Source: Streptomyces sp. NBC_00289
GTDB lineage: Bacteria; Actinomycetota; Actinomycetes; Streptomycetales; Streptomycetaceae
Assembly: GCF_041435115.1 (NCBI RefSeq)
Contig: NZ_CP108046.1
Span: 7,130,001-7,194,000, forward strand
DNA: 64,000 nucleotides
Reading direction: 5' to 3'
In this document: positions 9,192-43,427 of the stretch, one piece after another
Position numbering within the stretch: position 1 is the stretch's first letter
How the letters are laid out: each line of letters opens with the position of its first letter
Position numbers and translations under genes: made by a program
Notes under the pieces: generated by a model
The model's input: the letters and a program-made list of their open reading frames with translations, nothing else
Told to the model about the DNA's origin: nothing
Database searches by the model: none

Positions 9192-9601
9192 GGCAGACGA
9201 GCCGGGCGGACGGCCGCGTGGAGCCCCCAGGGGCTTCCCGAGGAACGTCCGGGCTCCACAGGGCAGGGTGGTGGCTAACGGCCACCCGGGGTGACCCGCG
9301 GGACAGTGCCACAGAAAACAGACCGCCGGAGACCTCGGTCCTCGGTAAGGGTGAAACGGTGGTGTAAGAGACCACCAGTGCCCAGGGTGACCTGGGCAGC
9401 TAGGTAAACCCCACCCGGAGCAAGGTCAAAAGGAGCGCTGCAAAAGGTGCTCTGCGCGGACGTTCGAGGGCTGCCCGCCCGAGTCCGCGGGTAGACCGCA
9501 CGAGGCCGGCGGCAACGCCGGCCCTAGATGGATGGCCGTCTCCCCGGCCGCCGCGAGGCGACCGGGCGACAGAACCCGGCGTACAGCCCGACTCGTCTGC
9601 C
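9192..9601 (+). ncRNA. rnpB: RNase P RNA (bacterial type A)
   Basis: The catalytic RNA of RNase P, which removes tRNA 5' leaders. The ends pair perfectly as helix P1: GGCAGACGAG at 9192-9201 with CTCGTCTGCC at 9592-9601. Conserved internal blocks are visible: GAGGAACGTCCGGGCTCCAC, CAGGGTG..GTGGCTAACGGCCACCC, GTGCCACAGAAA, GGGTGAAACGG.GG.GTAAGAGACCACC, TAAACCCCACC.GGAGCAAGG and the 3' block ACAGAACCCGGCGTACAGCC. Length (about 410 nt) fits actinobacteria. Its last 27 bases double as the island attachment site, and integration has kept the gene intact. The exact transcript ends are inferred from P1. Confidence 0.97.
9575..9601 (+). other. attL: island attachment site in the rnpB 3' end
   Basis: 27 bp identical to 43401-43427. 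It begins CCCGGCGTACAGCC and ends CTCGTCTGCC, and contains the 3' strand of the P1 helix. The bases on either side differ at the two sites (AA/G here, TC/C at attR), which defines the core. Confidence 0.9.
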
Positions 9602-9691
9602 GCTGCCTGCGGCTTCGCCTTGGAAAGAGTCTCTGACCTACGTCGAAGGGCCTTTCCGATCTTTTGGGGGCTTGCTGCGTTACGCGGAGGA

Positions 9692-9731
9692 AAGTCCCTT
9701 GGAAGTCCCTCAGACAGGGCTGAAAGTCCCT
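9692..9731 (+). repeat. Three AAGTCCCT direct repeats on helical spacing
   Basis: AAGTCCCT at 9692, 9703 and 9724, that is 11 and 21 bp apart (one and two DNA turns), just inside attL. Such spacing fits arm-type protein binding sites. Function is not shown. Confidence 0.4.
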
Positions 9732-9960
9732 GGCGCAGAGACGCGGGGGACACCTCTGACCTGGGCCAGATCATAGTTCCGTCGATCTTGGTGTGGGTCT
9801 CTGCGATGGTGGCGTGAGGTGGGAAGCGGCGTCCGTTGCATTATGGGCCCCCGAAGGCGGCGGTTAGGGACGGCGGACAGTGGATCGTTTTCTCAGAGGT
9901 GTTGCGAGCTTTCTGTCATGCGCATAGCGAAACATCCCTTCGATACGGCGTATTGATCTT

Positions 9961-9986
9961 GGTGGATAACTCGGGTTGTGGATAAC
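9961..9986 (-). promoter_or_regulatory. Two DnaA-box-like sites
   Basis: TGTGGATAA at 9977-9985 is the exact complement of the classical DnaA box TTATCCACA. A one-mismatch copy (GGTGGATAA) starts at 9961, 16 bp away. The surroundings are AT-rich for this genome. This could be a replication-related site of the island or chance. Confidence 0.35.
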
Positions 9987-10014
9987 CCGTGCTGAACACC
10001 TTCCGCTTGCCGCG

Positions 10015-10167
10015 TGGGGCCAGGCCCACGGCACGCCGCAGTTACTGCTCAGCGGACCGCGTGCGGAGGCGGTGTTGGACGCGGAACTGGCCCCGACCAT
10101 GGAGGCATTGGGAATCGCCCTGCACGAGGAGGCGGCACTCGACCTGCTCTTGGAGGATCTCGGCTGA
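10015..10167 (+). pseudogene. 3' remnant of a second jetD-like gene
   Basis: Translated from about 10021, the last 48 residues (QAHGTPQLLLSGPR ... ALDLLLEDLG) match the C-terminus of the intact JetD-like protein at 42047-43348 at 41 of 48 positions, counted by eye. Both end at a stop in the same place. The DNA differs at many third positions, so this is not a recent copy of the neighbour but part of a different Wadjet operon. Nothing upstream resembles the rest of the gene. It sits 414 bp inside attL, just as the intact gene sits 52 bp inside attR. Confidence 0.8.
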
Positions 10168-10474
10168 GGTAGGGGCGGTTGTGGCTCAGTGCGGGGATGC
10201 ACACGGACATGACGTTGCATCCCTAGCACGGCGGCCTGTATGAACTCGCCCGTGCTCAACGCGGTGTCGTGGCGCGCGAACTGCTCACGACGATGAGGGT
10301 TCTGCTGATGGCTGCGGCTTTGTCTTACGGCCCCCCTGGGCCCCATCGCCCCGGCACCGGCGCGGCGCCCTGAGTGCACACCACGATCAGGTGAATTCCC
10401 CGCTTGAGGAAACCGTGCGAGATCTGAGCGAGTCACACACCTCGCATCACACGACCTTTGCCTCAAGGGGGACC

Positions 10475-10553
10475 ATGAATCAGCAGCAGTACCCGCCGTA
10501 GCAGCCCGGTTGGGGCGGCCACCAAACAGCCCAGAGGGCAGCCAGTGATCACG
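10475..10553 (+). pseudogene. Possible truncated proline-rich membrane-protein start
   Basis: GGGGGACC then ATG opens the frame MNQQQYPP, stopped by TAG at 10499, with QPGWGGHQ continuing in frame. Streptomyces membrane proteins often begin with a Q/Y/P-rich segment of this kind, so a CAG-to-TAG change and loss of the remainder is plausible. Apart from this, the jetD remnant and the short repeats, I see no gene between 9602 and 10595. Confidence 0.25.
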
Positions 10554-10595
10554 CCATCCCGGCGCCACCGGCTGAGCACCTTCGCGTCCACCGAA

Positions 10596-12500
10596 CTACA
10601 CGAGTTCCGGCACCTCGGCCCGGGATGCCGGATGAATAAGCGACCGCAGCTTCTCGCGGGTCTCCGCGTCCGTCGAGTAGAGGATTGTCCCCACCATTCC
10701 CCGGGTCAGGAGCACCTTGTACGTGTTGCGGATGAGGCGGTCGACGTCGTCGTCCGGAGTGGCCTTCGTGAAAGACGGGTCCTTCGACGCCGAGCGGTCC
10801 ACGACCCAGCGGTCCGTTCGCCAGACCAGATCGGGGCCGATGATCACGCCCGACCAGTCGTACTCGAAACCCTGCGCGGTGTAGACGCAGCCGACCTGGC
10901 CGAAGCCGGCCGGGTCGGTGGCCCAGAGGGGCGCAGGTGGTGCCCCGAGGGCGGATCGGTCGCCGTAGAGGTTCCAGGGGCGGGACCATTGGCCGACCAC
11001 GACGTCTTCGGGGAGTGTCGTCATGTCGGGCGTGATCTTCGTGGTCCATTTCCAGCAGTAGCCGGCCGACATGCGGGCGCCGTAGCCCTCCTCCCGGCGG
11101 GCGACGAGGAAGTCCTCAAGCTCCTGTGGGGTCTCGGCGGTCAGTAGTTGCAGTTTGCCGTCGGGCCCCCACAAGCTGGGCGTGCCGTCGTCCAGGCCGA
11201 GCAGGTCGATGACCCACTTCTCGTACGCGTCGCTGCCGCCGCACCGGAACTGGCCGTCCAGTTCCACCACCGTGCAGTCGAGGCCCTGCGCGGCGGCGGC
11301 CCGTTCGATCTCCTGCCTGGTTCCCATCTCGCCGGGGCGCACCACCTGGTGCTGGTCGAGCAGGAACACGGGGACCCGGGCCGCGTCGATCAGTTCCGCC
11401 ACCTGGGGTCGTCCAGTACGGAGCGCCGCCTTCGTGTAGCGGTTGGCGGAGGTCTTCCGCAGCCGGTGGGCCTCGTCGCAGATCAGCACGTCGAGGTCGT
11501 TGGGCTCGGCGTCCATGAAGCTGTTGAAGTACATGAACAGCTGCTGCACTTCACGCTTCTTGTGACCTGCGACCCTGCGCATCGTCTTGGTGAACGACGC
11601 GGATCCAGTCGCGTGTAGCGCGGGTACTCCGCGGCGGTACAGCTCACCCAGGACCGACAGAGCGATGACGCTCTTGCCGGATCCGGGACCGCCGGTCACC
11701 AGGATCACCTGCTTGTGGTTGCCGCGCTTGGCCTTGCGGACGGCGGACATCACCTTCTCGTACGCGACCCGCTGCTCGGCGATGAGCACGAACTGCTCTC
11801 GGTCGCGGATCTCGGCTGCCGCTACCGACATCAGCTGCTTCGACGGCCGTACCTTGGCGTCGAGCAGTACGTCGGCCACGTGTGCGCCGGGCTTCGCGGC
11901 AAGCCGCGAGCGCAGGAAGTCGAGGAAGGCGCCGCGCTGTTCCCCGGTGTACATCCGTCCGTACTGGTTCTCCTCGACGTTCCTCAGCCCCGCGATTTGG
12001 AACTCGGTCGCGTTGTGCAGGAACGCCACGCCAGCCAGGGAGTTGGGCATTCGCTCCAGCGCACCGTTGAACGACTGGAGATACTCGCAGTAGCCCCGTA
12101 CCTGCTCGATCGGGTTGAGGACGGGCTGCGCGTACGCGTCGATCCGGCACAGCAGCGGCTCGTCCTCCTCCGGGTAGGCCGCGCTCCACTGCTTGAGTTC
12201 GACTACGACGTACGACGGCTCGCCGGTGGTCGGGTGCACACCGGCGAGTACGGCGTCCGCGCGCTTGCTGGTCAGGGGCAGGCTGTACTCGACGAGGACC
12301 TCCACCTCGTCGAGCCCGGCCTCGATGAGCGCGTTGACGAGGGCGGGGAGGCTGCGCTCCCAGGACCGTATCTCCGCTTGTGCAGGCCTCCGGCCGTGCT
12401 GGTGACGGAAGTTCTGGGTCAGATGCAGCGCCAGCGCCCCTTCGAGGATGCGGGCGGCCACGGACGCCGCGGACACGGAACAGCAAGAAAAAGCCCCCAT
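10596..12500 (-). CDS. DUF2075 nuclease/helicase-like protein
   Basis: About 634 aa. Residues 40-200 look like a PD-(D/E)xK nuclease-type domain (RADAVLAG, then VVVELKQW giving D82 and E101-x-K103). Residues about 262 onward are a superfamily-1-like P-loop ATPase of the DUF2075 type: Walker A GGPGSGKS at 270-277, Walker B LDVLICDEAHR, QFRCGGSDAY, and YTAQGFEYDWSGVI near the C-terminus. It is expected to act on nucleic acid; such genes are frequent in defence-rich islands, but no activity is established. The start is uncertain: ATG 12500 lies inside a terminator-like hairpin, and GTG 12476 is an alternative that loses little conserved sequence. Confidence 0.85.
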   Translation of the reverse strand: MGAFSCCSVSAASVAARILEGALALHLTQNFRHQHGRRPAQAEIRSWERSLPALVNALIEAGLDEVEVLVEYSLPLTSKRADAVLAGVHPTTGEPSYVVVELKQWSAAYPEEDEPLLCRIDAYAQPVLNPIEQVRGYCEYLQSFNGALERMPNSLAGVAFLHNATEFQIAGLRNVEENQYGRMYTGEQRGAFLDFLRSRLAAKPGAHVADVLLDAKVRPSKQLMSVAAAEIRDREQFVLIAEQRVAYEKVMSAVRKAKRGNHKQVILVTGGPGSGKSVIALSVLGELYRRGVPALHATGSASFTKTMRRVAGHKKREVQQLFMYFNSFMDAEPNDLDVLICDEAHRLRKTSANRYTKAALRTGRPQVAELIDAARVPVFLLDQHQVVRPGEMGTRQEIERAAAAQGLDCTVVELDGQFRCGGSDAYEKWVIDLLGLDDGTPSLWGPDGKLQLLTAETPQELEDFLVARREEGYGARMSAGYCWKWTTKITPDMTTLPEDVVVGQWSRPWNLYGDRSALGAPPAPLWATDPAGFGQVGCVYTAQGFEYDWSGVIIGPDLVWRTDRWVVDRSASKDPSFTKATPDDDVDRLIRNTYKVLLTRGMVGTILYSTDAETREKLRSLIHPASRAEVPELV

Positions 12501-12532
12501 GCAGCACGAAGAAGACTCGTGCGGGTGGGGGC
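12488..12532 (-). terminator. Intrinsic terminator-like hairpin at the DUF2075 gene start
   Basis: On the minus strand a GCCCCC...GGGGGC stem encloses a second GCACGA/TCGTGC-type stem and is followed by five T residues (complement of 12488-12492). It overlaps the ATG at 12500. It is either a terminator of an upstream transcript or an attenuator for the DUF2075 gene. Confidence 0.65.
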
Positions 12533-12619
12533 ATGTCCTGTGCTGTCCGCCGCGTAGGCGGATCAGGAAGCCCGTCGGGCCGCTGAGATGTTGCTCGCCA
12601 TCCTAGGTGAGCGAGTCGA

Positions 12620-12910: not shown

Positions 12911-12924
12911 CCCCGGCGTTCCCG

Positions 12925-13604: not shown

Positions 13605-14228
13605 TCAACCGAGGGTAACCGTCGCGAAGGGTTTCCACTCGTACATCTTGTTGTCCCGGTGGATCACGATGAGCTCCGCGGTGGAAATCCGCGCCCGCGC
13701 CGGCGTGAGGGCAAGGCCAGCGAGGACCTGCGCGATCGGCTCGGCTGGACCGTCCGCGGCGCTGTAGGCCACGGAGACGTGCGGGGTGAAACCCTCGGCG
13801 TTCTCCGGGACCTCGTCAAGAACGTCCCCGATGGCTTCCCGGATGGTGTTTCGGACGGTCCGAACAGGGCCATCCGGGTGGACATGCAGGAGCACCGCCT
13901 CGGGGTCCAGCACCTCTGGTCCGATCTGGACGTCGAAGGCGGGAATGGCTGCCAGTCGTGCATGGGCTGCATCCACGATGGCGTTTAGGTCCTGCTCCTT
14001 GGTCTCACCCACGAAGCCGATGCCCTGCATGGTTAGGTGCAGCCATCGGTCGGGGATTGGGGTGAGGGCATCTCCCAGAGGTGCGAGCGCGGAGCGGTAC
14101 TCGGCAGCAAGCCGGTGTACATCGTCCTGGCCGTCGAACGTCAGATGCCATGTATAAAAGCGGCGCCCCACATTCCAACCGGGCCGCCACCACCAATGGT
14201 TCCGCATGGTCTCGGTCTGAGTCGTCAT
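13605..14228 (-). CDS. 2'-5' RNA ligase-like 2H phosphoesterase
   Basis: Start ATG 14228 (MTTQTETMRNHWWWRPGW); 207 aa. Two histidine motifs define the 2H superfamily: HLTMQGIGF (H-x-T, about residue 64) and HVSVAY (H-x-S, about residue 150). Members act on 2',3'- or 2'-5'-linked RNA ends or cyclic nucleotides; the specific substrate is unknown. It starts 13 bp after the upstream XRE/TPR regulator ends on the same strand, so the two are almost certainly co-transcribed. Confidence 0.85.
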   Translation of the reverse strand: MTTQTETMRNHWWWRPGWNVGRRFYTWHLTFDGQDDVHRLAAEYRSALAPLGDALTPIPDRWLHLTMQGIGFVGETKEQDLNAIVDAAHARLAAIPAFDVQIGPEVLDPEAVLLHVHPDGPVRTVRNTIREAIGDVLDEVPENAEGFTPHVSVAYSAADGPAEPIAQVLAGLALTPARARISTAELIVIHRDNKMYEWKPFATVTLG

Positions 14229-14241
14229 AGTCCGGATCAAA

Positions 14242-15723
14242 TCAGGAGGAGCCGTTCCTTGGCGAGAGCGCAAGGTGTCGTGGCACGGAGTCTACGCAGA
14301 ACTCTTCGATGGCTTGCCGTAGCCCGATTGCCGCAGTGCCGCCAGCTTGAGATCGGGTGATGCCGGAGCACAATTCGCCGAGTCGGCGGGTGACGGGTGC
14401 CAGGCGCTGATCGGGTGGAAGCGCCAGGACGGGCGTGAGAGCTTCGAGGGCGCCCTCTGCTTCGCCAGCTGCGAGATGTGCTGAGGCCTGGCTGATATGG
14501 ATCTGAGCTTCCGTGCCGTATGCCCTGACCGGCTGCACAGTCAGAAGCGTGAGGGCGTTATCCGCAGATCGCAAGGCGTCGGCAGGGCGGCCGAGACGCA
14601 GCTGCACTGCCGCCGCGTAATTCTCCTGCCGAGCGGGCTGACAGGCGAAGATGCCCCCGACAGCGTCCTCGCCGCTCATCGCGGTGCGTGCGTCATTGGC
14701 CCGGGTCAGCGCCGCCAAGGCCTCGTTTGGAGCTCCCAGTTCGGACCATGCGTCGGCTTCCTGGCAGGCGAGTAGCACCGCGACCGTTCCCGTGGTGCGG
14801 TAGTTGGTGCCGCGTCGGGCGAAGTTGATCGCGTCGCGAAGGCGTCCGTCCCAGAAGGCCACCTTGGAACGAGTCGACAGCACCCAGGCGCGCAGGTCGT
14901 TGTGCCCGGCCAGTTCCGCGCACAGCCATGCTGTGCGGCCCTGGGTTTCCGCATCGGGCAGCTGCCCCAAGTCGGAGGACATCCACGCCAGGAGCCCGCA
15001 CAGGTAGCCGGCCGCGACGTACAGGTCTGCCGACTGACCGGGGTATTGATGGCCTTCCAGGAGAGCGAAGACGCGGTCGCGTAATGCCCGCGTGCGGACA
15101 AAGAGTGTGACTGGGTCTGAAGTGAGGTAGTCCGATGCGAGTGCCCGCGTCTCGGCCATTAGTTGCTCAAGGGCTATGTCACCGACGTTCGAAGCCTCAA
15201 CCCATTGCGCCCACGTCGCGGACTCGTCGGCGGCGACACGCACCAAATCGGTTCCAGTCGGCTCGGGCGTAGCGAACATGGGCGACGGCGTGGCGGGCGG
15301 GGACGGAGGCTCGCTGGTTGGCGGACGATGGATGAGCAGGCGAAGGTCTGCCTCGGGTAGCGCCCGCCTGTCCTCCAGATCCAGCAGGTCCTCCACGCGG
15401 CACGCGAAGGCTTCCGCCATGGCCATCAAGACCGGGAGGCTGGGACGGCGTGAGGAAGGACCAGGCCACTTCTCCCACTTGCCCACAAGGGACGCGTCCG
15501 CAGCGACAGACTCGCCCGGATGCCTGGTACTTGCCTGGGTGATCCGATCAGAGGCCTCTTGAAGCGTCCAGCCGTGTGCATGCCGCCACGCTTCCCTGGG
15601 CCGCATCCGGAAGCGGGTGCGCATCTCGATGGCGATGTTAGCCATGGTGCATTCAGCGGCGGTCATGTCTTGACGGAGGGCATCCCGGTCTGCCTTGGTG
15701 CCGGGCTTCGAAGGGGCGTTCAT
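14242..15723 (-). CDS. XRE-type helix-turn-helix regulator with TPR-like C-terminus
   Basis: ATG 15723 with GGGAG about 8 nt upstream; 493 aa. Residues about 30-110 hold an HTH of Streptomyces type (FRMRPREAWRHAHGWTLQEASDRI ... LVGKWEKWP ... LMAMAEAFACRVEDLLDL). The rest is Ala/Leu-rich helical repeats typical of TPR-containing regulators (ADAWSELGAPNEALAALTRA; ASAHLAAGEAEGALEALTPV). It is divergent from the HATPase gene across a 237-bp region with two inverted repeats, so it is the prime candidate regulator of the lanthipeptide run and of itself. Confidence 0.85.
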   Translation of the reverse strand: MNAPSKPGTKADRDALRQDMTAAECTMANIAIEMRTRFRMRPREAWRHAHGWTLQEASDRITQASTRHPGESVAADASLVGKWEKWPGPSSRRPSLPVLMAMAEAFACRVEDLLDLEDRRALPEADLRLLIHRPPTSEPPSPPATPSPMFATPEPTGTDLVRVAADESATWAQWVEASNVGDIALEQLMAETRALASDYLTSDPVTLFVRTRALRDRVFALLEGHQYPGQSADLYVAAGYLCGLLAWMSSDLGQLPDAETQGRTAWLCAELAGHNDLRAWVLSTRSKVAFWDGRLRDAINFARRGTNYRTTGTVAVLLACQEADAWSELGAPNEALAALTRANDARTAMSGEDAVGGIFACQPARQENYAAAVQLRLGRPADALRSADNALTLLTVQPVRAYGTEAQIHISQASAHLAAGEAEGALEALTPVLALPPDQRLAPVTRRLGELCSGITRSQAGGTAAIGLRQAIEEFCVDSVPRHLALSPRNGSS

Positions 15724-15866
15724 CGGCGTGCTCCCAGTCGGGTGTTGTGATCTCACGGTAGCCGCGGTCGTAGCTCGACCGGATGACTGCGACCTGGATG
15801 ACCGGGGATTCGCAGCCCAACGAACCGTCCATAAAAGCTGGTTCCTCCTGGTCAGCGCAGCGGCCG

Positions 15867-15918
15867 GTGTCCAGAAAAGTTGGACACGGGCGCCCGTGAC
15901 GCCAACTGCCCAGTTTGG
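15867..15918. promoter_or_regulatory. Two adjacent operator-like inverted repeats
   Basis: GTGTCCA (15867-15873), 7-nt spacer, TGGACAC (15881-15887) is a perfect dyad. A second dyad, CCAACTG-CC-CAGTTTGG, covers 15902-15918. Both lie between the divergent regulator (15723) and HATPase (15961) starts, where an autoregulator would bind. Confidence 0.55.
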
Positions 15919-15960
15919 AACGGTAGAGGGACACCGCAACCACCACCGTCGAGGACACAG

Positions 15961-16662: not shown

Positions 16663-16737
16663 TGTCCCTCTTACGTGCTCAAGGCACGCCAGCTCTTCAC
16701 CCTGCTCACCACCAGCTCCACAACGCGGGGTGCTCCG

Positions 16738-17724
16738 ATGGTGAGCAGTGACATGCCCCTGACCCCTCATCCTGCGGGATACGACGAAGGCTTGCGCCTG
16801 GCTCTGGAAGACCTCCTGCTCGACCGGTGGCTCTCAACCAAGGCTCTGCTCGCCAACACCCGCAGTTGGGCGCTGCGCACGTCCCGCAGTCAGGTCCTGG
16901 CGGCCGGCGCCGCCAAAGGTGACGCCATCGCGGCCTGGTGCGCAGAGGAACCCGGAGACGCGAACGCCCTGATGATGCGGGCCCGCGTCATGACCCACCG
17001 GGTTGTGGGCGCTCACCGCAGCACGGCAGACCGTCACACCCTGCTCCCCAGGGTCAGCGCCGCGCGGGCTGCATGCGGGGACGCCGCACGCCGCTGGCCG
17101 GCTGACCCCGTTCCGTGGGTGTGCCTGCTGGCGCTCGCCCAGTTGGACATCGACCACAGGCACTGGCACTCCGTTGACCACTGGGCGAATCCCACAGAGG
17201 CCATGCTGCCGCGGGGGCCGTGGCCGCTGCTGTGGCAGGTAGACCGGCGGGACTGGTCCAACAGGGAGGCGTATCACCGGATGCTCCAGTGCTTCCAGGC
17301 CCGCGGCAATGGAGCCGTGGACTTCACACGCTGGGTGGCCTCCCAGGCGAAGCCGGGAGCCGTACTGCTGAATCTGCCCTTGTACGCCTACGTCGAGGAC
17401 TACCGGCTACGAACGGCAGGTGGACAGGTCGCCAGCACGCTCGGGTACTGGACCAACGACCAGGTCCGGTACTACGTCGAGCTGGCGAGAGACGGATGGT
17501 TCGCCTACGTCACCGACATGAGCACCTGCTCCCTGCTGGATCTTAACTATCTGGCCTACACGCTGACTGCCTGTGGCCTGCCCGGCGCGGCAGAAGTGTT
17601 CGAAACGATCGGCCCGTTCGCCACCCCCGCGCCATGGCAGCACGTCAGCGAAAGCCGATGGTGGCAGGACGACTTCCTGCAGGCGCGCAACTACGCGATG
17701 AAGCGCGAGCGGTACCGCAGATGA
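16738..17724 (+). CDS. Hypothetical helical protein (328 aa)
   Basis: ATG 16738 (MVSSDMPLTPHPAGYDE). Soluble, Trp-rich and helical (LEDLLLDRWLSTKALLANTRSW; WPADPVPWVCLLALAQLDIDHRHW; SESRWWQDDFLQARNYAMKR). The repeats resemble a TPR-like solenoid. I recognise no named family. It lies 75 bp after the HATPase and 77 bp before the permease, so it probably belongs to the same transcript. Confidence 0.75.
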   Translation: MVSSDMPLTPHPAGYDEGLRLALEDLLLDRWLSTKALLANTRSWALRTSRSQVLAAGAAKGDAIAAWCAEEPGDANALMMRARVMTHRVVGAHRSTADRHTLLPRVSAARAACGDAARRWPADPVPWVCLLALAQLDIDHRHWHSVDHWANPTEAMLPRGPWPLLWQVDRRDWSNREAYHRMLQCFQARGNGAVDFTRWVASQAKPGAVLLNLPLYAYVEDYRLRTAGGQVASTLGYWTNDQVRYYVELARDGWFAYVTDMSTCSLLDLNYLAYTLTACGLPGAAEVFETIGPFATPAPWQHVSESRWWQDDFLQARNYAMKRERYRR

Positions 17725-17801
17725 GTCGAGCACCCCAACCGCGAGGCGGTTCCCAGCGCCACCCCGTCCCTGTTTCCCTTTCGACCCAGAGGATTCTTTC
17801 G

Positions 17802-19313
17802 GTGTCTCCGAGAAGTGCCGCCCACCGGCTGGTGGACGACGATGCCGTCCTGACCGGGCTCGGCTACCAGACCGTACTGGCGCGCCGTATGGGCCCGTTC
17901 GGCAACTTCGCGATCTCGTTTTCCGTCATCAGCATCCTGTCCGGATGCATGACTCTCTACAGCTTCGGCCTGAACACTGGCGGACCGGCCGTGATCATGT
18001 GGGGCTGGGTCGGCGTCGGTCTGATGGTCTTGCTGCTCGGTATGTCGTTAGCCGAGGTGACCTCCGCCTACCCCACCTCGGGCGGCCTGTACTACATGGC
18101 GCACCGGCTCGGCGGGCCCCGCTGGGCCTGGGTAACCGGCTGGCTGAACCTGCTCGGGCTGCTTGGTGCCATCGCCGGCATCGACTACGGCGCTGCCACG
18201 TTCGTCGGCGCGTTCTCCAACCTCCAGTGGGGCTTCACGCCGACACCCGAGAAGACCATGATGATCTTCGCCGGGATCTTGCTGCTGCACGCCCTGCTGA
18301 ACGTGGCCGGCGTCCGCCTGGTCAGCCTCCTGAACTCGGTCTCGGTGTGGTGGCACCTCGTCGGCGTCGCAGTCATCGTCGGCGTCCTGATCCTCGCTTC
18401 GGCCGATCACCAGAGCGCCAACTTCGTGTTCACCACGTTCAACAACGACACCGGCTTCAGCAACGGCCTGTACGTGACCGCAATCGGGCTGCTGCTGGCG
18501 CAGTACACCTTCTGCGGCTACGACGCCTCCTCCCACCTGTCCGAGGAGACCACGCAGGCCCAGATATCGGCGCCGAGGGGGATCGTCCGCTCGATCTGGG
18601 TCTCATGGATCGCCGGGTTCATCCTGCTGGCTGGGCTCACGTTCTCCATCCAGGACTACGCGGGCACGCGGAGCAGCGCCACCGGCGTGCCGCCCGCCCA
18701 GATCTTCCTTGACGTCGTCGGCCATTCCGGCGCCAAGGCCCTGCTGCTGATCGTGATCGTGGCCCAGCTGTTCTGCGGCAACGCAGAGACCGCCGCTGCC
18801 TCCCGCATGGTGTTCGCGTTCTCCCGCGACGGGGCGGTTCCGTTCGCTGCCACCTGGCGCCACGTGAGCACCCGCACGAAGACGCCGGTTGCCGCCGTGT
18901 GGCTGTCGGTAGGAGTCGCGCTCCTCCTGGCGGCACCGTCGCTGTACTCGCCGACCGCGTACGCCGCAGTCACGGCCATCAACGTCATCGGCATCACCCC
19001 CGCCTACGCCATCCCCGTCTATCTGCGGCTGCGCGCGGGGGACCACTTCAAGCCCGGGCCGTGGAATCTTGGCCGGTGGAGCAAGCCCATCGGCTGGACG
19101 GCTGTGACTTGGGTCGGCGTCGTCACCGTCCTGTTCTGCCTGCCGCAGGTCTCCCCGATCACCGCCTCATCGTTCAACTACGCGGGCGTCGCCCTGATCG
19201 TCGTGCTTACGCTGGCCTGGATCTTGTGGATCACTCAGGGCCGCCGCAACTACCGCATCCCGGCCCTGGGCAACACCGCCACTCATGCCTCCCTGGCGGA
19301 GGACGTGGTCTGA
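17802..19313 (+). CDS. APC-superfamily amino-acid/amine permease
   Basis: GTG 17802 with AGAGGA about 10 nt upstream; 503 aa with about twelve hydrophobic helices. Family motifs: NFAISFSVISILSGCMTLYSFGL in TM1, AEVTSAYPTSGGLYYMAHRLGGPRWAW after TM2, YDASSHLSEETTQAQISAPRGI in the middle loop. The pattern matches the amino acid/choline/GABA transporter branch. It overlaps the glutamine-synthetase-like gene by TGATG, so the two are translationally coupled and the permease may import that enzyme's amine or amino-acid substrate. Confidence 0.9.
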   Translation: MSPRSAAHRLVDDDAVLTGLGYQTVLARRMGPFGNFAISFSVISILSGCMTLYSFGLNTGGPAVIMWGWVGVGLMVLLLGMSLAEVTSAYPTSGGLYYMAHRLGGPRWAWVTGWLNLLGLLGAIAGIDYGAATFVGAFSNLQWGFTPTPEKTMMIFAGILLLHALLNVAGVRLVSLLNSVSVWWHLVGVAVIVGVLILASADHQSANFVFTTFNNDTGFSNGLYVTAIGLLLAQYTFCGYDASSHLSEETTQAQISAPRGIVRSIWVSWIAGFILLAGLTFSIQDYAGTRSSATGVPPAQIFLDVVGHSGAKALLLIVIVAQLFCGNAETAAASRMVFAFSRDGAVPFAATWRHVSTRTKTPVAAVWLSVGVALLLAAPSLYSPTAYAAVTAINVIGITPAYAIPVYLRLRAGDHFKPGPWNLGRWSKPIGWTAVTWVGVVTVLFCLPQVSPITASSFNYAGVALIVVLTLAWILWITQGRRNYRIPALGNTATHASLAEDVV

Positions 19314-20683
19314 TGAGCAGCCAGCACACTGACCCGAACTACGAGATGTCCCGGCTCGCCGGTCTCATCACCGCCGAGGACTTCCGGACCGCGGTGGATC
19401 GTGAGGACATCACCACCGTCATGGTTTGTGTCCCCGACATGATGGGGCGCCTCAAAGGCAAGCGGCTCAGCGCACGGGTTTTCCTCGACCGGATCACCGA
19501 CGGGCTCAACGTGTCGGAAGCCTGCGCTTACATCCTGGCCACCAACGTGGGCATGGACCCCCTTGGCGGCTTCGACCTCACGGGCTGGGACAAAGGCTTT
19601 CAGGACCTCGGCATGATCGCCGACCTGAACACGCTGCGTGTCCTGCCCTACATGCCCGGCCTGGCGCTGGTTCACTGCGAGGCCGTCCAACCTGACGGGA
19701 CGCCCCTGGAGATCGCTCCGCGCCGCATGCTCCGCACTCAGCTCGATCGGCTGGGCAAGCTCGGCTTCGAGGCGCGCGTGGGTCTGGAGAGTGAGTTCGT
19801 TCTCTGCAACGGCCTTCAGCCCATGGTGCAGCACAACCTCGACTACGCCCTCGACCATCCGCCGGCACTGAGCGACTTCTTCCGGTACCTGGAAGACGCT
19901 CTGCCCGAGGCCGGCGTACCGATCGAGGCGACCAAGACAGAGGGCGCTCCCGGCCAGGTGGAGATCACGTTCCCCTACGGCCCGGCGCTTCAGGCCTGCG
20001 ACGCCTACACCGTCTACAAGCAGACCGTGCAGCACCTGGCCAGACGTCAGGCTCTGTCGGCCACGTTCATGAGCGCACCGTTCACCGGCGTGGGCAGCGG
20101 GCTGCACCTGCACCTGTCCCTCTGGAAAGACGGCGCCCCAGCCTTCGACGCGGTCCCCGGCGAGGAGCTGCCCGAGACGATGCGCCACAGCATCGCCGGC
20201 CTGCTCTCCGGAATGCCGCGCCTCGCCCCGCTGTACGCGCCCAACCCCAACTCCTACAAGCGGTACGCGACGGCGCACTCCTTCGCACCCCAGTACATGA
20301 ACTGGGGCCACGACAACCGCGGGTGCGCCGTCCGGGTCACCGGTCACGGCGAGGGCACCCACCTGGAGATCCGCCTACCTGGCGCCGACGCCAACCCGTA
20401 CCTCGCGCTGGCTGCCTCGATCGCTGCGATCGTGCACGGCCTGACCGAGAAGCTGACCCCGCCCGCACCCTGCCGGGGCGACGCCTACGCAGACCGGCAG
20501 GCGGTGCCTGTTCTGCGTGACCTCGCCGAGGCGCTGGCGTACTTCGACGGCAGCAACTTCGCGACGAGCGCGCTCGGAGCCGAGGTAGTGCGGCACTACG
20601 CCATCGCAGCCGAGGCCGAGATCGCCGAACACCGGAGACAAGTCACCGACGTCGAGCGGGAACGGTGGTTCGACCGTGCGTGA
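19313..20683 (+). CDS. Glutamine-synthetase-family ligase (gamma-glutamyl-amine type)
   Basis: ATG 19313 overlaps the permease stop; 456 aa. GS-fold motifs: VCVPDMMGRLKGKR at the N-terminus, GLESEFVL (metal Glu), KTEGAPGQVEITF, GSGLHLHLSLW (the ATP/metal HxH), NSYKRY, and R..G..THLEIRLPGADANPYLALAA. The N-terminal MGRLKGKR block and the pairing with an APC permease resemble PuuA/GlnA4-type enzymes, which join glutamate to polyamines or monoamines, more than the ammonia-assimilating GS. Whether it serves the lanthipeptide (for example amidating a side-chain carboxylate) or only nitrogen uptake is unknown. Confidence 0.88.
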   Translation: MSSQHTDPNYEMSRLAGLITAEDFRTAVDREDITTVMVCVPDMMGRLKGKRLSARVFLDRITDGLNVSEACAYILATNVGMDPLGGFDLTGWDKGFQDLGMIADLNTLRVLPYMPGLALVHCEAVQPDGTPLEIAPRRMLRTQLDRLGKLGFEARVGLESEFVLCNGLQPMVQHNLDYALDHPPALSDFFRYLEDALPEAGVPIEATKTEGAPGQVEITFPYGPALQACDAYTVYKQTVQHLARRQALSATFMSAPFTGVGSGLHLHLSLWKDGAPAFDAVPGEELPETMRHSIAGLLSGMPRLAPLYAPNPNSYKRYATAHSFAPQYMNWGHDNRGCAVRVTGHGEGTHLEIRLPGADANPYLALAASIAAIVHGLTEKLTPPAPCRGDAYADRQAVPVLRDLAEALAYFDGSNFATSALGAEVVRHYAIAAEAEIAEHRRQVTDVERERWFDRA

Positions 20684-20796
20684 GTGACCGGCGCGTAACC
20701 GCCCCCAGCGACGGCGTCCTGGTTAGCGTCCTCGCTGACCACCAAGCCCATCTGTGCCTTCGCAAGCCCCACCCCTCAACAGAAATAGGTAACCGG

Positions 20797-22002
20797 ATGC
20801 CTGTTATCGATGACTCGACCGATCGCGATCCCGGCGCGTGGCGTGCGGAGATGGTCCGCGCGCTCCGTGACCAGGACGCGATCACGTCCGACTCGGTTGC
20901 TGCGGCCTTCGCCGCCGTGCCCCGGCACCGGTTCGCGCCGGAGGCGTCCCTGGAGGTCGTTTACGATCTCCACCGGATTGTGCCGGTCAAGAAAGACGAG
21001 AGCGACCTGAACGTCAGCGTCATGTCCGCCGCCCACCTTCAGGGTGTGATGCTGGAGCAGGCCGACATCGCGCCCGGGATGAAGGTCCTGGAGATCGGCT
21101 CGGGCGGCGTCAATGCCGCCTACCTCCAGGAACTCGTGGGCAGCGACGGTGAGGTCACCACGGTCGACATCGACCGCGACATCGTCGACCGTGCCCGCCT
21201 GTGCCTGGACGAGGCCGGATACCGGCAGGTGAAGACGGTCCTCGCCGATGGCGAGAGGGGCGTCCCCGACGGAGCGCCCTACGACCGGATCATCGTCACC
21301 GCGGCGGCGTGGGACATCCCCCCGTCGTGGATCTACGGGCTCACGGAGAAGGGCAGGCTCGTCGTTCCGCTCACGGTGTGCGGCACAACCCGCTCGATCG
21401 CCTTCGACCGTGACGGTGCGGGCCTGCTCAGCCGCTCCTACCGTCTTGCGCACTTCGTGCCGATGCAGGGCGAGGGCGCCGCCGAGGAACGCAAGGTGCT
21501 GCTGCGGGAGGGCGTCGTCGTGCAGACCGATGACGTGCGGGTGCCCCTCAACGCGCAGGCGCTGAACCATGCCCTGGACACCCCCCAGCTGGTGCGCTGG
21601 TCGGGTGCGGCATGGGACCTGCCAGACGAGCTGGACCTGTACCTCACCCTCAACCTGCCGCGTGCGGTGCGGCTGCACGCGGCCAAGGATGTGGTCGAGC
21701 GGGGGCTGGTGGCACCGGCGGTCCAGTTCGGGGTGCCCGCCCTGGTCAGCGAGGACAGCATCGCCTACCGCACCCGCCGCGACAACGAGGCCACCGGCGG
21801 CTTCGAGAGCGGCGTCATTGCCCACGGTCCGCAGGCCGAAGCCCTCGCCGACCAGTACGCGGAGCTGCTGCGCCGCTGGGCCGAACACCACCGTCGCCGG
21901 GGAGCTGCGACGTTCCGGTACCTGCCGGGCCCCGCTCCGTCGCCTCTGCCGCAGGACGCCGTACTGCGGCGGCACGGGATCGTCACCGCGTCCTGGACCT
22001 GA
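20797..22002 (+). CDS. FxLD-system protein-(iso)aspartate O-methyltransferase
   Basis: The start taken is ATG 20797 (401 aa); the frame is open upstream to GTG 20677, which would nearly abut the previous gene. The N-terminal half is a PCMT-like methyltransferase: FAAVPRHRFAPEA, then the SAM-binding VLEIGSGGVNAAYL and EVTTVDIDRDIVDRA. The extended C-terminal region (ALDTPQLVRWSGA ... YRTRRDNEATGGFESGVIAHG) matches what I recall of TIGR04364, 'methyltransferase, FxLD system'. Related RiPP enzymes methylate a core Asp, leading to aspartimide or isoaspartate. The precursor core has Asp-Asp-Gly, the right context. Confidence 0.9.
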   Translation: MPVIDDSTDRDPGAWRAEMVRALRDQDAITSDSVAAAFAAVPRHRFAPEASLEVVYDLHRIVPVKKDESDLNVSVMSAAHLQGVMLEQADIAPGMKVLEIGSGGVNAAYLQELVGSDGEVTTVDIDRDIVDRARLCLDEAGYRQVKTVLADGERGVPDGAPYDRIIVTAAAWDIPPSWIYGLTEKGRLVVPLTVCGTTRSIAFDRDGAGLLSRSYRLAHFVPMQGEGAAEERKVLLREGVVVQTDDVRVPLNAQALNHALDTPQLVRWSGAAWDLPDELDLYLTLNLPRAVRLHAAKDVVERGLVAPAVQFGVPALVSEDSIAYRTRRDNEATGGFESGVIAHGPQAEALADQYAELLRRWAEHHRRRGAATFRYLPGPAPSPLPQDAVLRRHGIVTASWT

Positions 22003-22067
22003 GACTCCGGGGCCCAGCGAGGGCTCCGGGACCTTGCACCATCCCCCATTACCTCAAGGAGGCACAC

Positions 22068-22250: not shown

Positions 22251-22328
22251 CAACACCGACCGCGTCCACCGCGGTGCCCGGCCGCACCACGAGCGCGGCC
22301 GGGCACCGCCCAGTCCCAGGAGGGGCGT

Positions 22329-30770: not shown

Positions 30771-30808
30771 CGAGATCATTCTTGCCCAATTGGGCAAGAA
30801 TGATCTCG
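30771..30808. repeat. Perfect 38-bp palindrome at a gene end
   Basis: Two 19-bp arms with no loop, centred on CCCAATTGGG (30785-30794). It overlaps the last codons and the stop of the split gene. There is no T-tract, so it is not a standard intrinsic terminator. Operator, cruciform, or protein-bound transcription or RNA-processing site are all possible. The region 30809-31057 that follows has no supported gene. Confidence 0.85.
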
Positions 30809-31057
30809 ATTTGCCGAGTCCCTTGGTGCCATCGCGAGCCGATCACCGCCCGAAACCCCATGCGTCACAGGCATCGGCGATTCGGTCATATCTGCACCGG
30901 CCCCGGGCCGCCCCGGCACGGCGGTCACAGGTTCACCCCTTGCGGTACAAGGGCCCCTGCACGTCCGAAAGCGAGCGCGTTCGAATCCCGCCGCATGTCG
31001 TTATGCCGTGCACGCCGAGCCATCCAGGTGCGGCACCCCCCCCAAGAAGGGATACAG

Positions 31058-32947
31058 GTGACTGTGACTGACGCCTCGACTGCAAACGAGGAGACGCCGC
31101 CCCCTCCACCCCCGGCCAGCATCACCTTCGAGGGCAAGTACGGCAAGAACCCGCTGGCAGATGCCAGTTTCGGAGCGATGTGCCGACGCCTTCCCTCCGT
31201 GCTCGGGCACACCGCGCGGATGGCGTGGGCCGTCGACAGGACCGGCGTCGTGCTGCTCCTGGTCTGCCAGTTGTTCACCGGCATCGCGGCCGCCGTCGTC
31301 CTCGCCTTCACCGCCCAGGCGATGACCCACCTCCTCGCCACCGGGACCGTTTCCGGACGTCTGCACGCCGCACTGCCCGCTCTGGTAGTGGTGACGACAG
31401 CTGCGGGCATCGGCCGCATCAGCGGAGCCCTCTCCTCGTACGCCGACGGACGGATCACACCTCTGCTGATGACCGAGGCGGACGTTGCCCTCGTCGCCGC
31501 CGTATGCCGCGTGGAGGCAGCCGCGTACGGCGAGGACGGATTCGCCGACCGGCAGGAGGCCGCCGAAGTCGGCGTCACCCGGACCCGGATGATGGTCCAG
31601 GATGCCCAGCGGTTCATGTCCGCCCTGATCCGCATGATCGCCGCGAGCGGGGTCATCACCGCGCTGCACCCGCTGATGCTGCCTCTGCTCCTGCTGGCCG
31701 TGCTCCCGGCCGGCGCCGGCGCAGTGCTGTCCGCGCGCGTTGACTACGAGACCCACTACCTCAACGTCGGCGACCGCAACGTGCGCTCCATGATGCGCTG
31801 GTGGGCCACCTACTCCCGCTACGGCGACGAGGTCCGCGCCAACGGCATGACCGACTACCTCATCTACTGGTACCGCGCCCTGTCCGACCGGATCGACCAG
31901 CGCACCGTGACCGCAGCCCCGCGGATGCTCCGCATCGTCCTGGCCACCAGCGCCCTGGGCGGGATCTTCCAGCTGGGTACCTGGGCCACCCTCGCCTGGC
32001 TGGCCACCACCGGCCGGGTCGCCCTGCCCATCGCTGCCACCGCCCTGGTCGCCGTCCAGACCACACTGGCCTCGCTCTCCCAGTTCGTCATCCACGGCGC
32101 CGCGATGTTCCACACCTCGCTCTACCTGGCCGACATGAGGTCCTTCCTCGACATGGCCACCGAACGCGCCCCCAAGCGCGGGGAATTGATTATCCCGCAA
32201 CGCGTGGACGAGATCCGCCTCGACGAGGTCGTGTACCAGTACCCCGGCAAAGAGGAGCCGGCCGTCGCGGGGGTCTCACTCACGCTCCGCCGCGGCGAGA
32301 TCCTGGCCATCGTCGGCGAGAACGGCTCGGGCAAGTCAACCCTGGCCAAGCTCCTCACCGGCATCCTCCTCGCCGACAAGGGGCGCGTCCTGTGGGACAG
32401 CATCAACCTTGCCCAGGCCACCCCCGACTCCGTGTGGAAACGCACCGCGCTCGTCCCCCAGGGGTTCGCATGCTGGCCCCTACGCGCCCGCGAGAACATC
32501 ACCCTCGGTCAGCCCAAAACGTACGACGACGGGCCGGTGTGGGACGTCGTCGACGCCGTCGGTATGCGGGAAGCGATCGAAAAGCTGCGCCACCAGCTCG
32601 ACACCCTCCTAGCCAAGGAGCTGTTTGGCGGCGCCGAGCTGTCCGGAGGGCAGTGGCAGCGACTCGTGTGCGGCCGCGCGCTTTACAGGCAAACGCCACT
32701 GCTGATCTTGGATGAGCCGACCTCACAGATGGACGCCCGCGGTGAGCACGCCATCTTCCTGGAGATCAAACGGATCGCCGCCGAGCGCATGACGATCGTC
32801 GTCACCCACCAACTCGAGAACACACGGCTCGCCGACCGCATCCTCGTCATGGACAAGGGCCGAGTTATCGAACATGGGACGTACGAGGACCTTGTAAACG
32901 CCGGAGGACTGTTCGCAGAACTCGTCGCCCTGGCCAAGGACCGTTGA
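31058..32947 (+). CDS. ABC exporter (TMD-NBD half transporter)
   Basis: GTG 31058 with AAGAAGGGA about 6 nt upstream; 629 aa. Residues about 55-340 form a six-helix exporter membrane domain. Residues about 370-620 are the ATPase: Walker A VGENGSGKSTLAKLL, Q-loop LVPQGF, signature LSGGQWQRL, Walker B LLILDEPTSQMDA, and H-loop VVTHQLENTR. No peptidase C39 domain is present, so leader removal must come from elsewhere. Its place at the end of the run implies export of the modified peptide. Confidence 0.92.
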   Translation: MTVTDASTANEETPPPPPPASITFEGKYGKNPLADASFGAMCRRLPSVLGHTARMAWAVDRTGVVLLLVCQLFTGIAAAVVLAFTAQAMTHLLATGTVSGRLHAALPALVVVTTAAGIGRISGALSSYADGRITPLLMTEADVALVAAVCRVEAAAYGEDGFADRQEAAEVGVTRTRMMVQDAQRFMSALIRMIAASGVITALHPLMLPLLLLAVLPAGAGAVLSARVDYETHYLNVGDRNVRSMMRWWATYSRYGDEVRANGMTDYLIYWYRALSDRIDQRTVTAAPRMLRIVLATSALGGIFQLGTWATLAWLATTGRVALPIAATALVAVQTTLASLSQFVIHGAAMFHTSLYLADMRSFLDMATERAPKRGELIIPQRVDEIRLDEVVYQYPGKEEPAVAGVSLTLRRGEILAIVGENGSGKSTLAKLLTGILLADKGRVLWDSINLAQATPDSVWKRTALVPQGFACWPLRARENITLGQPKTYDDGPVWDVVDAVGMREAIEKLRHQLDTLLAKELFGGAELSGGQWQRLVCGRALYRQTPLLILDEPTSQMDARGEHAIFLEIKRIAAERMTIVVTHQLENTRLADRILVMDKGRVIEHGTYEDLVNAGGLFAELVALAKDR

Positions 32948-33181: not shown

Positions 33182-33222
33182 GCTGTGTATGCGCAATCGC
33201 GGGAGGCTTGCGCATACACAGC
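33182..33222. repeat. 41-bp inverted repeat with 15-bp perfect arms
   Basis: GCTGTGTATGCGCAA (33182-33196), 11-nt spacer, TTGCGCATACACAGC (33208-33222). Each arm contains TGCGCA, the unit of the neighbouring array. Confidence 0.9.
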
Positions 33223-42050: not shown

Positions 42051-43348
42051 GCGACCCTCGTGCGCGGGAAGCGGCGACTCCTCTGGACGCCGAGACGCTT
42101 GCCTTTCTGACCCGGCCCGGCCTCGCCCGCCTCCGGACGGCCGCCCGAACCCGTCTCGAACGCAACGGTCTGCAGCCGAACGGCACGATCAGGCTTCAGC
42201 GTCTAACCGCACAGGAACGCGAGGACCTCTCCCTGCTCCTTGCGAAACCAATCACCACCTCCACCGCCACGATCCATCTGCTGGACCTGGACACCCGCCT
42301 GCGCACCAGCGCGGTCGGCCGCGGTCTGGCCGAGACCTTGACAGCACTGGGCCCGGCCCTGACCGACCGCCGGGCGGCCCGGGACGCAGCGGCGGCGCAA
42401 CGCGCCGGCCTGTGGTCCGCGGCCGAAGCGGCCCTCGCCGCCACCCCACTGGCCCCCCACCCGTGGACGGCCCGGTGGCTGGAGGAGATACGACGCGCAG
42501 GGACGCTCGCCCGCCAAGACCAGCACACCGCGACCACCATCCTCCACCAGGCGATCCGAACCCTGGCCACGCTCTTCCCCGGCCCGCACGCGGAACCCAC
42601 CCCGGCCGTCTGGGGCCGCGGCGAACTCGCCACCCGCACCACCGGCTCGGCCCACGGCCTGGACGACGGCACCCTGCTCTCCCGCCTGGTCCTGCGCGGC
42701 ATCGCCCTGGCATCCGACACCCACGTCCCCGCCGACGCACCGGGCCGCCGGACCCTGTGGCGCCAGGCCTCGGTCACCCCGGACGAGGTGTCCAGCACAG
42801 TCCTCAGCTACGGCCTGCGACCAACAGGCGCGAGCTGGGGCGAGAAAACCCTGCAAGAACGCGCGGACCACAACCTGGAGACCCACCTCACCCTGCGCGA
42901 ACTGCGCACCCTGCACCTCGAGATGCCACCCCGCACCCAGATCCACGTATGCGAGAACCCACGCGTGGTCGAAGCCGCTGCCGACGCTGGCTGCACCGCA
43001 ACCCTGATCTGCACTTCCGGCAGCGCGACGACGGTCGTCCGCACCCTGCTCGACGCGCTGGCCGCCGCCGGATGCGCCTTCACATACCACGGTGACTTCG
43101 ACTGGCCGGGGATCACACTGGCCAACCGCGTCGTGGAGCGGTACAGCGCGCAGGCATGGCACATGAGCGCAAAGGACTACGAGTACCTCGCGACCCGCAC
43201 CCAGGTACACGGCACCCCGCAGCTTCTCCTCACCGGTCCGCGCGTGGAAGCCGTATGGGATAAGGAACTGGCACCGACCATGGACGCCCTGGGCATCGCC
43301 CTGCACGAAGAGGCGGCGCTCGACCTGCTTCTGGAGGACCTCACCTGA
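42047..43348 (+). CDS. jetD: Wadjet-like JetD (Toprim nuclease, TIGR02679/DUF2399)
   Basis: ATG 42047 overlaps the JetC stop; 433 aa. The C-terminal Toprim-like domain shows the acidic set expected for a topoisomerase VI-like nuclease: E303 in HVCENPRV and D350/D352 in YHGDFDWPG. The N-terminal half is helical and specific to the TIGR02679 group. It is expected to cut plasmid DNA when the JetABC motor stalls on a small circle. It ends 52 bp before attR. A homologous 3' remnant lies at the opposite border (10015-10167). Confidence 0.9.
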   Translation: MSDPRAREAATPLDAETLAFLTRPGLARLRTAARTRLERNGLQPNGTIRLQRLTAQEREDLSLLLAKPITTSTATIHLLDLDTRLRTSAVGRGLAETLTALGPALTDRRAARDAAAAQRAGLWSAAEAALAATPLAPHPWTARWLEEIRRAGTLARQDQHTATTILHQAIRTLATLFPGPHAEPTPAVWGRGELATRTTGSAHGLDDGTLLSRLVLRGIALASDTHVPADAPGRRTLWRQASVTPDEVSSTVLSYGLRPTGASWGEKTLQERADHNLETHLTLRELRTLHLEMPPRTQIHVCENPRVVEAAADAGCTATLICTSGSATTVVRTLLDALAAAGCAFTYHGDFDWPGITLANRVVERYSAQAWHMSAKDYEYLATRTQVHGTPQLLLTGPRVEAVWDKELAPTMDALGIALHEEAALDLLLEDLT

Positions 43349-43400
43349 ACCTCTGAAGGACACCGGCAGACCAGACGACGCGATATGAGTTGAGTCTGTC

Positions 43401-43427
43401 CCCGGCGTACAGCCCGACTCGTCTGCC
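43401..43427 (+). other. attR: 27-bp copy of the rnpB 3' end
   Basis: Identical to 9575-9601 and not part of any RNase P RNA here (no upstream rnpB sequence). This marks the right end of the island. The next bases (GCGGCTCTGCC) loosely resemble those after attL (GCGGCTTCGCC). Confidence 0.9.

What the first reader, a model, noticed from the sequence alone, without database searches (positions are those of the whole stretch)
9575..43427. Genomic island using the 3' end of rnpB as its attachment site, with no integrase inside
The last 27 bp of a fully recognisable RNase P RNA gene recur exactly 33.8 kb downstream, enclosing accessory genes. tRNA and tmRNA genes are the usual targets; rnpB is unusual to my knowledge. 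The core includes the 3' strand of P1, so integration restores an intact rnpB. No tyrosine or serine recombinase is recognisable between the repeats, so the element is either stranded or moved in trans, or its recombinase is in an unrecognised gene such as 16738-17724.
Basis: partly seen in the sequence, partly recalled or inferred. Interest (0 to 1): 0.8.

Follow-up and report, generated by a model that had tools for sequence, protein, structure and literature searches.

The report
Integrase-less island at rnpB attachment site
A 34-kb block of defence and peptide-antibiotic genes in this Streptomyces sits between two copies of the 3' end of the RNase P RNA gene, which turns out to be a recurrent landing site in the genus for conjugative elements, probable phages and small islands that mostly carry no integrase of their own.

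Summary
The 27-bp repeat (9575-9601, 43401-43427) is exact, overlaps the 3' end of rnpB and has no other copy within 3 mismatches in the 11-Mb genome. It is an attachment site: 43 of 392 same-genus genomes (own included) have same-strand copies 1.4-128 kb apart, reversed-pattern control 0; in 35 the first copy is at rnpB, in 8 it is not. A sister element has a matching empty site. Recombinases found elsewhere: IntA (~420 aa), a core 89-112 bp past its end in 20 of 22 relatives; IntB, 0.4-0.8 kb from rnpB in 3 of 5 loci; probable phages. IntA elements span 75-116 kb; the one examined has type IV secretion genes. The window's left end carries the ~130-bp IntA-type arm, but no recombinase was found and no recognisable right arm. 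Best reading: an integrase-less, probably stranded island in an accretion hot spot at rnpB. Cargo: complete Wadjet II, a lanthipeptide cluster, a Schlafen-like helicase. New variant of a known kind.

The parts
9198..9599 (+). rnpB, class A RNase P RNA (target gene)
   Evidence: Rfam RF00010, 292.6 bits
9575..9601 (+). attL core, 27 bp, includes 3' strand of P1
   Evidence: exact repeat
9602..9732 (+). type A attachment arm (putative integrase arm / replacement terminator, partly decayed); weaker similarity reaches about 9799
   Evidence: 85% to the arm of ICE G163 over 9600-9732; 72-87% to other arms; score 172 against at most 118 in 1000 random window segments, which may overlap the arm itself
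10596..12500 (-). Schlafen group 3 type helicase; weak PADLOC matches (PDC-S41, Nhi, AbiO, mad8)
   Evidence: PF09848 E 1.1e-87
13605..14273 (-). 2'-5' RNA ligase superfamily protein
   Evidence: PF13563 E 5e-21
14242..15939 (-). NsdA-family TPR-like regulator (longest-ORF start)
   Evidence: NF053720 133.6 bits, cut-off 75
16675..17724 (+). DUF4034-like hypothetical protein, not a recombinase by homology (start may be 16738)
   Evidence: 120 listed of 472 homologues
17634..19313 (+). amino acid permease (longest-ORF start)
   Evidence: PF13520
18899..20683 (+). glutamine synthetase family protein (longest-ORF start)
   Evidence: PF00120; below equivalog cut-offs
20665..22002 (+). FxLD-system methyltransferase of a class I lanthipeptide cluster
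   Evidence: TIGR04364 526.8 bits, cut-off 320
22329..25232 (+). lantibiotic dehydratase (LanB-like)
   Evidence: PF04738, PF14028
24656..26473 (+). lanthionine synthetase C-like (longest ORF; true start probably later)
   Evidence: PF05147
26810..28240 (+). second Lant_dehydr_C / thiopeptide-type protein
   Evidence: PF14028, TIGR03891
28618..29883 (-). IS transposase (DDE_5)
   Evidence: PF13546 E 1.4e-100
30782..32947 (+). ABC exporter
   Evidence: PF00005
33504..34673 (-). Replic_Relax family protein (7 other matches in this genome)
   Evidence: PF13814
34751..36523 (+). JetA of type II Wadjet
   Evidence: PDLC00541 744 bits, PF09660
36400..37866 (+). JetB of type II Wadjet
   Evidence: PDLC00543 422 bits, PF09661
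37863..42050 (+). JetC of type II Wadjet
   Evidence: PDLC00553 1370 bits
41966..43348 (+). JetD of type II Wadjet; its stop lies about 50 bp from the distal core
   Evidence: PDLC00557 442 bits, PF11796/PF09664
43401..43427 (+). attR core, 27 bp, no recognisable integrase arm on its left; weak arm-A-like similarity on its right
   Evidence: left-arm score 32 against 150-204 in G081, G163 and G064/G175
43428..51950 (.). second variable segment between distal core and conserved chromosome; no third core found in it (ungapped search)

Best explanation
The island is a cargo segment at a recurrent site-specific integration hot spot, the 3' end of rnpB. Its left junction (rnpB core plus ~130-bp arm) is the attL of an IntA-type conjugative element. 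IntA-type recombination exchanges the 22-27-bp core at the end of rnpB, keeps the P1 strand and so the gene, and puts a terminator carried in the element arm in place of the native one (inferred). The island has since lost, or never had, the integrase and the right-hand arm, so it now lies stranded between two perfect cores. It could move again only if an rnpB-specific integrase enters the cell and accepts an arm-less right end, or through accretion beside a new element. Shown: repeat, arm, no integrase found, linked integrases elsewhere, an empty site for a sister element. Inferred: past integration, loss of mobility, terminator replacement.
For: 43 of 392 genomes have same-strand core pairs 1.4-128 kb apart, 35 of them starting at rnpB. 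Among 22 IntA relatives at 76% identity or more, 20 have a core at up to 4 mismatches (19 at up to 3) 89-112 bp past the end of the match, against 3 of 57 less related integrases with a core at up to 3 mismatches anywhere in the fetched locus. Arm A, whole or part, is in 96 of 392 genomes (58 at E<=1e-20, hand count) while IntA at 77% or more is listed in 10, two of them interrupted. The window's arm is 85% identical to that of ICE G163 over 133 bp and the strong match stops at 9732. Of 32 core-to-core segments under 40 kb, 1 (G208) holds a full-length tyrosine-recombinase-like protein; of 9 segments of 70 kb or more, 6 have an intact IntA or IntB at an end. Empty site: G003 joins rnpB directly to sequence that in G014 lies right of the distal core, 88.3% over 2237 bp from core base 1. 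The IntA element of G081 has a TraG/TrwB coupling protein, weak TrbL and PrgI matches, NlpC/P60, a HTH_17 protein and the integrase at its right end. Folds, without a shuffle control: sequence after rnpB in G003 -56.0, G163 arm -46.8, window arm -27.1 kcal/mol.
Against: The empty site for this very island is not shown. The right end lacks the IntA-type arm (left-arm score 19, within shuffles), so its two ends may come from different elements. Distal cores without a recognisable left arm also occur in other islands with arm A at rnpB (G152, G355, G161, G113), which simple deletion does not readily explain. The sequence right of the distal core weakly resembles arm A (score 35, 0.3% of random window segments as good), which could mean native attB flank or relic of an older element. 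In 8 of 43 genomes the core pair is not at rnpB, among them G143 with an intact IntA and G064 with an interrupted one, so the site is not exclusive.
Confidence: 0.72

Rival explanations
1. Trans-mobilised satellite: the island (and other short ones) is a functional integrase-less element whose cores and arms are used in trans by IntA, IntB or phage integrases.
For: Eight type B elements have both arms conserved but no integrase found: G130, G269, G175/G064 (counted once), G256, G088, G277, G105 first element, G126; the one type B element with an integrase is G313. Arrays mix arm types (G260, G105, G064).
Against: The window's own right end lacks a recognisable arm; no IntA-group or IntB integrase in its genome (best IntA-search match E 5.6e-72, no IntB match at 1e-80). 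Interrupted or partial integrases (G064/G175; G008 86-aa fragment; a G342 remnant seen by eye that the HMM did not report) show that decay also occurs.
Confidence: 0.2
2. Composite: attL from one element and the distal core from an older insertion, the stretch between built by several insertions and deletions.
For: Different left and right arm types in other pairs (G169 A/B, G325 A/B, G189 A/C, G342 C/A); an IS inside; a second variable segment right of the distal core; weak arm-A similarity right of the distal core.
Against: No internal core remnant on the + strand at up to 7 mismatches, indels not excluded; both cores exact.
Confidence: 0.35
3. Chance repeat or short duplication of the rnpB end without site-specific recombination.
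For: Only the absence of an integrase.
Against: Reversed-pattern control 0 in 392 genomes; arm homology; integrase linkage.
Confidence: 0.02

Closest known systems
Streptomyces AICEs/ICEs mostly in tRNA genes, with accretion and decayed elements (PMC9513070, passages read)
   Same: one site hosts elements with different integrases, tandem accretion, decayed elements with direct repeats and cargo but no working integrase, empty sites in relatives
   Different: insertion sites there are 36 tRNA genes, 14 protein-coding genes, 1 intergenic; 'rnpB' and 'RNase P' do not occur in the main text
PAISt of S. turgidiscabies at the bacA 3' end (PMC4057263, abstract and outline read, term search)
   Same: large Streptomyces island with a tyrosine recombinase at one end, modular excision between repeats, related islands fixed by erosion of the integrase
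   Different: 8-bp palindrome in a protein gene; 'rnpB' and 'RNase P' do not occur in the text
tRNA and tmRNA 3'-end attachment sites in general (recalled, no call)
   Same: integrase core inside the 3' end of a structured RNA gene, gene restored by the core
   Different: target is the RNase P RNA gene, and the element arm also appears to bring a terminator

Membership tests
Site-specific integrated island (ICE/IME type) | direct repeats flanking the island, one inside the 3' end of the target gene, target restored | tested here: met
   P1 strand read
Site-specific integrated island (ICE/IME type) | own integrase | tested here: not met
Site-specific integrated island (ICE/IME type) | conjugation module | tested here: inconclusive
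   24 island ORFs scanned with Pfam: only Replic_Relax is of that kind; other and smaller ORFs not scanned
Site-specific integrated island (ICE/IME type) | empty site in relatives | tested here: inconclusive
   not found for this island; met for sister element G014/G003
IntA-type rnpB ICE remnant | type A attL arm | tested here: met
IntA-type rnpB ICE remnant | type A attR arm | tested here: not met
Integrase-less trans-mobilised satellite | both arms intact | tested here: not met
   right arm not recognisable in the window
Integrase-less trans-mobilised satellite | excision in trans | not testable with these tools
   needs a bench test
Type II Wadjet | JetA, JetB, JetC, JetD in order | tested here: met
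FxLD class I lanthipeptide cluster | FxLD methyltransferase, dehydratase, cyclase | tested here: met
FxLD class I lanthipeptide cluster | precursor peptide | not tested
   small ORFs were not examined

The most novel reading that the evidence does not exclude
rnpB is a shared docking hub. Several integrase lineages of ICEs and phages converge on the same P1-strand core, and a class of integrase-less satellites carrying only cores plus arms rides on these integrases in trans, with swappable defence and RiPP cargo. The att arm doubles as a replacement terminator, so RNase P RNA 3'-end formation is taken over by the element.
Probability: 0.3. Interest if true: 0.75.

Novelty: new variant of a known kind. 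Interest (0 to 1): 0.57.

Why it matters
It adds an essential ribozyme gene to the integration targets, names integrases linked to it, and gives a simple handle (a 22-bp motif) for finding small defence and biosynthetic islands that integrase-based searches would miss. The integrases could also serve as Streptomyces integration tools with a widely shared attB. Whether the integrase-less islands move in trans is directly testable with the type B mini-elements.

Tried and rejected
16675-17724 as hidden recombinase: rejected (the PDB hits at E about 0.01 to PBP3 are weak and not taken as evidence). Serine recombinase in the fetched elements: only a resolvase-like stretch in two frames in G319 (L011; HMM from two sequences, so of limited reach). 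A common gene in all elements: all-against-all comparison of 14 islands found no family shared by more than 4. The window's right flank next to rnpB: 82 of 121 genomes gave hits at E<=1e-3, short chance-like matches except G088, which has 2.9 kb at about 90% in the chromosome arm, not at rnpB. Replic_Relax as a shared mobilisation gene: in 17 of 36 genomes, but of the listed matches only the window's lies between paired cores. Phage and plasmid collections with a 34-bp query gave mostly weak matches. Ten literature searches in open-licence PMC papers found no description of rnpB as attB; six papers were opened at passages only (PMC8776855, PMC10763512, PMC2705793, PMC5462765, PMC4524478, PMC9513070) and PMC4057263 as abstract, outline and term search. 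Most subscription papers are not held, so absence from print is not claimed.

Limits of counts: the 43 genomes are a hand count from the listings, coordinates typed into; pairs on different contigs, the inverted pair of G165 and copies with more than 1 mismatch were left out, so it is a lower bound. Large elements were read at their ends or by genome search only, except G081. Lists are capped or thresholded; short high-identity integrase remnants may be missing. Arm consensus sequences were composed by eye, so scores against them are a guide. Early recombinase screens used regular expressions and missed L078; the HMM replaced them. It also corrected 17 to 16 of 19 IMG/VR stretches with the phage-type integrase.

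Full report
Observation. RNase P RNA (class A) is at 9198-9599 (+). The 27-mer at 9575-9601 recurs exactly at 43401-43427, nowhere else in the window, and the 24-mer inside it has no other copy at up to 3 mismatches in the 11.0-Mb genome. The repeat contains the 3' strand of P1, complementary to the 5' end of rnpB, so recombination there restores the gene.

Is it an attachment site? In 392 same-genus genomes (own included) the 22-bp core at up to 1 mismatch is found in 278, with 0 for the reversed pattern. With positions and, for 42 further multi-copy genomes, 43 genomes have at least two same-strand copies on one contig within 130 kb: 46 spacings, 1.4 to 128 kb, 32 under 40 kb. In 35 of the 43 the first core is the end of rnpB; in 8 (G319, G175, G064, G228, G143, G114, G033, G176) it is not (for G228 both cores read, L201 and L202). 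Three genomes have arrays of three (G260, G105, G064). An empty-site test works for a sister: right of the distal core in G014 lies sequence that in G003 directly follows rnpB, 2237 bp at 88.3% from core base 1. In G169 and G032 the same relation holds over 698 bp at 83%, starting 75 and 35 bp from the core. Single distant cores exist in further genomes; the five fetched (L198, L200, L201, L202, L205) are followed by arm A, but they were picked because one search had found arm A there. The window's own genome has a third, deletion-bearing copy with part of arm A at C1:3.02 Mb.

The recombinases. IMG/VR holds 19 stretches (18 contigs) with the core; each matches 33-90 bp of the rnpB 3' end. Sixteen of the 19 encode a relative of the 459-aa tyrosine recombinase of L024, some cut short; L027, L032 and L034 show none in the DNA held. 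In L024 the gene ends about 30 bp from the core. Stretches L026, L028 and L032 have PHROG matches such as processivity factor, RusA, tail protein and endolysin, so probable phages. In Streptomyces genomes large elements carry another recombinase, IntA (~420 aa), at their right end. A scan of named genomes gave 79 loci: of 22 IntA at 76% identity or more, 20 have a core at up to 4 mismatches (19 at up to 3) 89-112 bp past the end of the match, same strand; of 57 less related integrases 3 have a core at up to 3 mismatches in the fetched locus. In the 392 genomes IntA at 77% or more is listed in 10: G081, G107, G224, G143, G242, G163, G364, G135, and interrupted in G175 and G064. A further lineage, IntB, occurs in 5 genomes and lies 0.4-0.8 kb from rnpB in 3. 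The G081 element (75 kb; contig of S. humi by length and identity) carries a TraG/TrwB-type coupling protein, weak PrgI and TrbL matches, NlpC/P60, a HTH_17 protein, IntA and an AIPR protein: a conjugative element.

Arms. Right of the rnpB core, elements carry one of at least four arm types, set up by eye. The window matches type A of ICE G163 over 133 bp at 85% and other type A arms at 72-87%; score 172 against at most 118 in 1000 random window segments. The strong match ends at 9732, weaker similarity reaches about 9764-9799, and beyond that the DNA is unrelated to the arms' neighbours, apart from 158 bp at 9866-10021 shared with G228. Arm A, whole or part, occurs in 96 of 392 genomes at E<=1e-6, 58 at E<=1e-20 by hand count. 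Left of the distal core, G081, G163 and G064/G175 have a conserved arm overlapping the end of int (scores 150-204); the window scores 32 there and does not differ from shuffles. Right of its distal core it weakly resembles arm A (score 35; 0.3% of random segments as good). The G163 arm folds to -46.8 kcal/mol, the sequence after rnpB in G003 to -56.0, a type B arm to -36.1, the window's arm to -27.1 (no shuffle control); I infer that integration swaps the rnpB terminator for one brought by the element.

Integrase-less islands. All 32 core-to-core segments under 40 kb were read end to end with an HMM from 53 related integrases. One, G208, holds a 435-aa tyrosine-recombinase-like protein about 6 kb from its rnpB core (E 2e-14); G008 has an 86-aa fragment; the other 30, the window among them, have none. 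Of the 9 spacings of 70 kb or more, 6 have an intact IntA or IntB at an end (G081, G163, G107, G143, G224, G313), G064 an interrupted one, G342 a remnant seen by eye in an ORF of L073, and G228 none found. Cargo differs almost completely between 14 islands compared. Eight type B elements (G130, G269, G175/G064 counted once, G256, G088, G277, G105 first, G126) have both arms conserved and no integrase found; G313 is the type B element with IntB. These eight are the best candidates for trans-mobilised satellites; the window's island is weaker evidence because its right arm is missing.

The window's island. Six-frame searches of its genome for PF00589 (20 hits) and PF00239 (14 hits) give none in the window. 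The suspected 16738-17724 gene belongs to a family of hypothetical proteins (472 homologues, 120 listed, some named DUF4034). Cargo: Schlafen-type helicase, LigT-like protein, NsdA-family regulator, permease, glutamine synthetase-like protein, an FxLD lanthipeptide cluster, an IS, an ABC exporter, a Replic_Relax protein and a complete type II Wadjet whose JetD stop is about 50 bp from the distal core. ICE G163 carries a distantly similar LanB/LanC set (37-45% identity) near its own left end. Conserved chromosome resumes near 51,950, so 43,428-51,950 is a second variable segment without a further core in an ungapped search.

Mechanism. Shown: core identity, arm, cargo, no integrase found, linked integrases elsewhere, one empty site. 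Inferred: the island's left end was made by IntA-type recombination; the right-hand arm and integrase were lost or never present; the island is now stranded, or composite.

Prior art. Accretion, different integrases at one site and decayed integrase-less elements are documented for Streptomyces tRNA sites (PMC9513070, passages), and erosion of an island integrase for PAISt-type islands at bacA (PMC4057263, abstract). Ten searches of open-licence papers found none on rnpB as attB, which is not proof that none exists. Hence: new variant of a known kind, interest moderate to good.

Noticed in passing
G000:C1:3020104-3020162 (locus L193): Third, degenerate att (core with a one-base deletion and a substitution) followed by 59 bp of arm A, 4.1 Mb from rnpB on the other strand.
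   Followed up: partly
43428-51950: Variable segment right of the distal core with a PASTA protein (43622-44317), a LuxR-type regulator (44822-47317; similar DNA in the chromosome arm of G088), a 1187-aa protein without Pfam or PADLOC match (47459-51022) and a SMODS-associated NUDIX protein (51073-51834).
   Followed up: partly
L100:7232-8151, L103:3302-4218: Two type B mini-elements carry a Fic protein with a VbhA/Phd-type antitoxin near their right end (Pfam-tested in L100 only; L103 by sequence likeness).
   Followed up: partly
L092:3949-6340, L095:5463-6760: Genes that by eye look like an ATP-grasp peptide maturase with a small precursor-like ORF; not tested by HMM.
   Followed up: no
L011:4139-4859: Resolvase-like sequence in two frames close to one core of the G319 element, possibly a broken serine recombinase.
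   Followed up: no
L077:11114-12442: A second tyrosine-recombinase-like protein beside IntA in the G081 ICE.
   Followed up: no
L220:5488-6793 (G208:C26): 435-aa tyrosine-recombinase-like protein inside a 31.9-kb rnpB segment, not at an end.
   Followed up: no
L102 (G165:C29): Two rnpB copies in inverted orientation about 3 kb apart with identical flanks; may be an assembly artefact.
   Followed up: no
G143, G064, G228, G319, G114, G176, G033, G175: Core pairs away from rnpB, in G143 with an intact IntA and in G033 with an integrase beside a core; secondary sites or arrays seeded elsewhere.
   Followed up: partly
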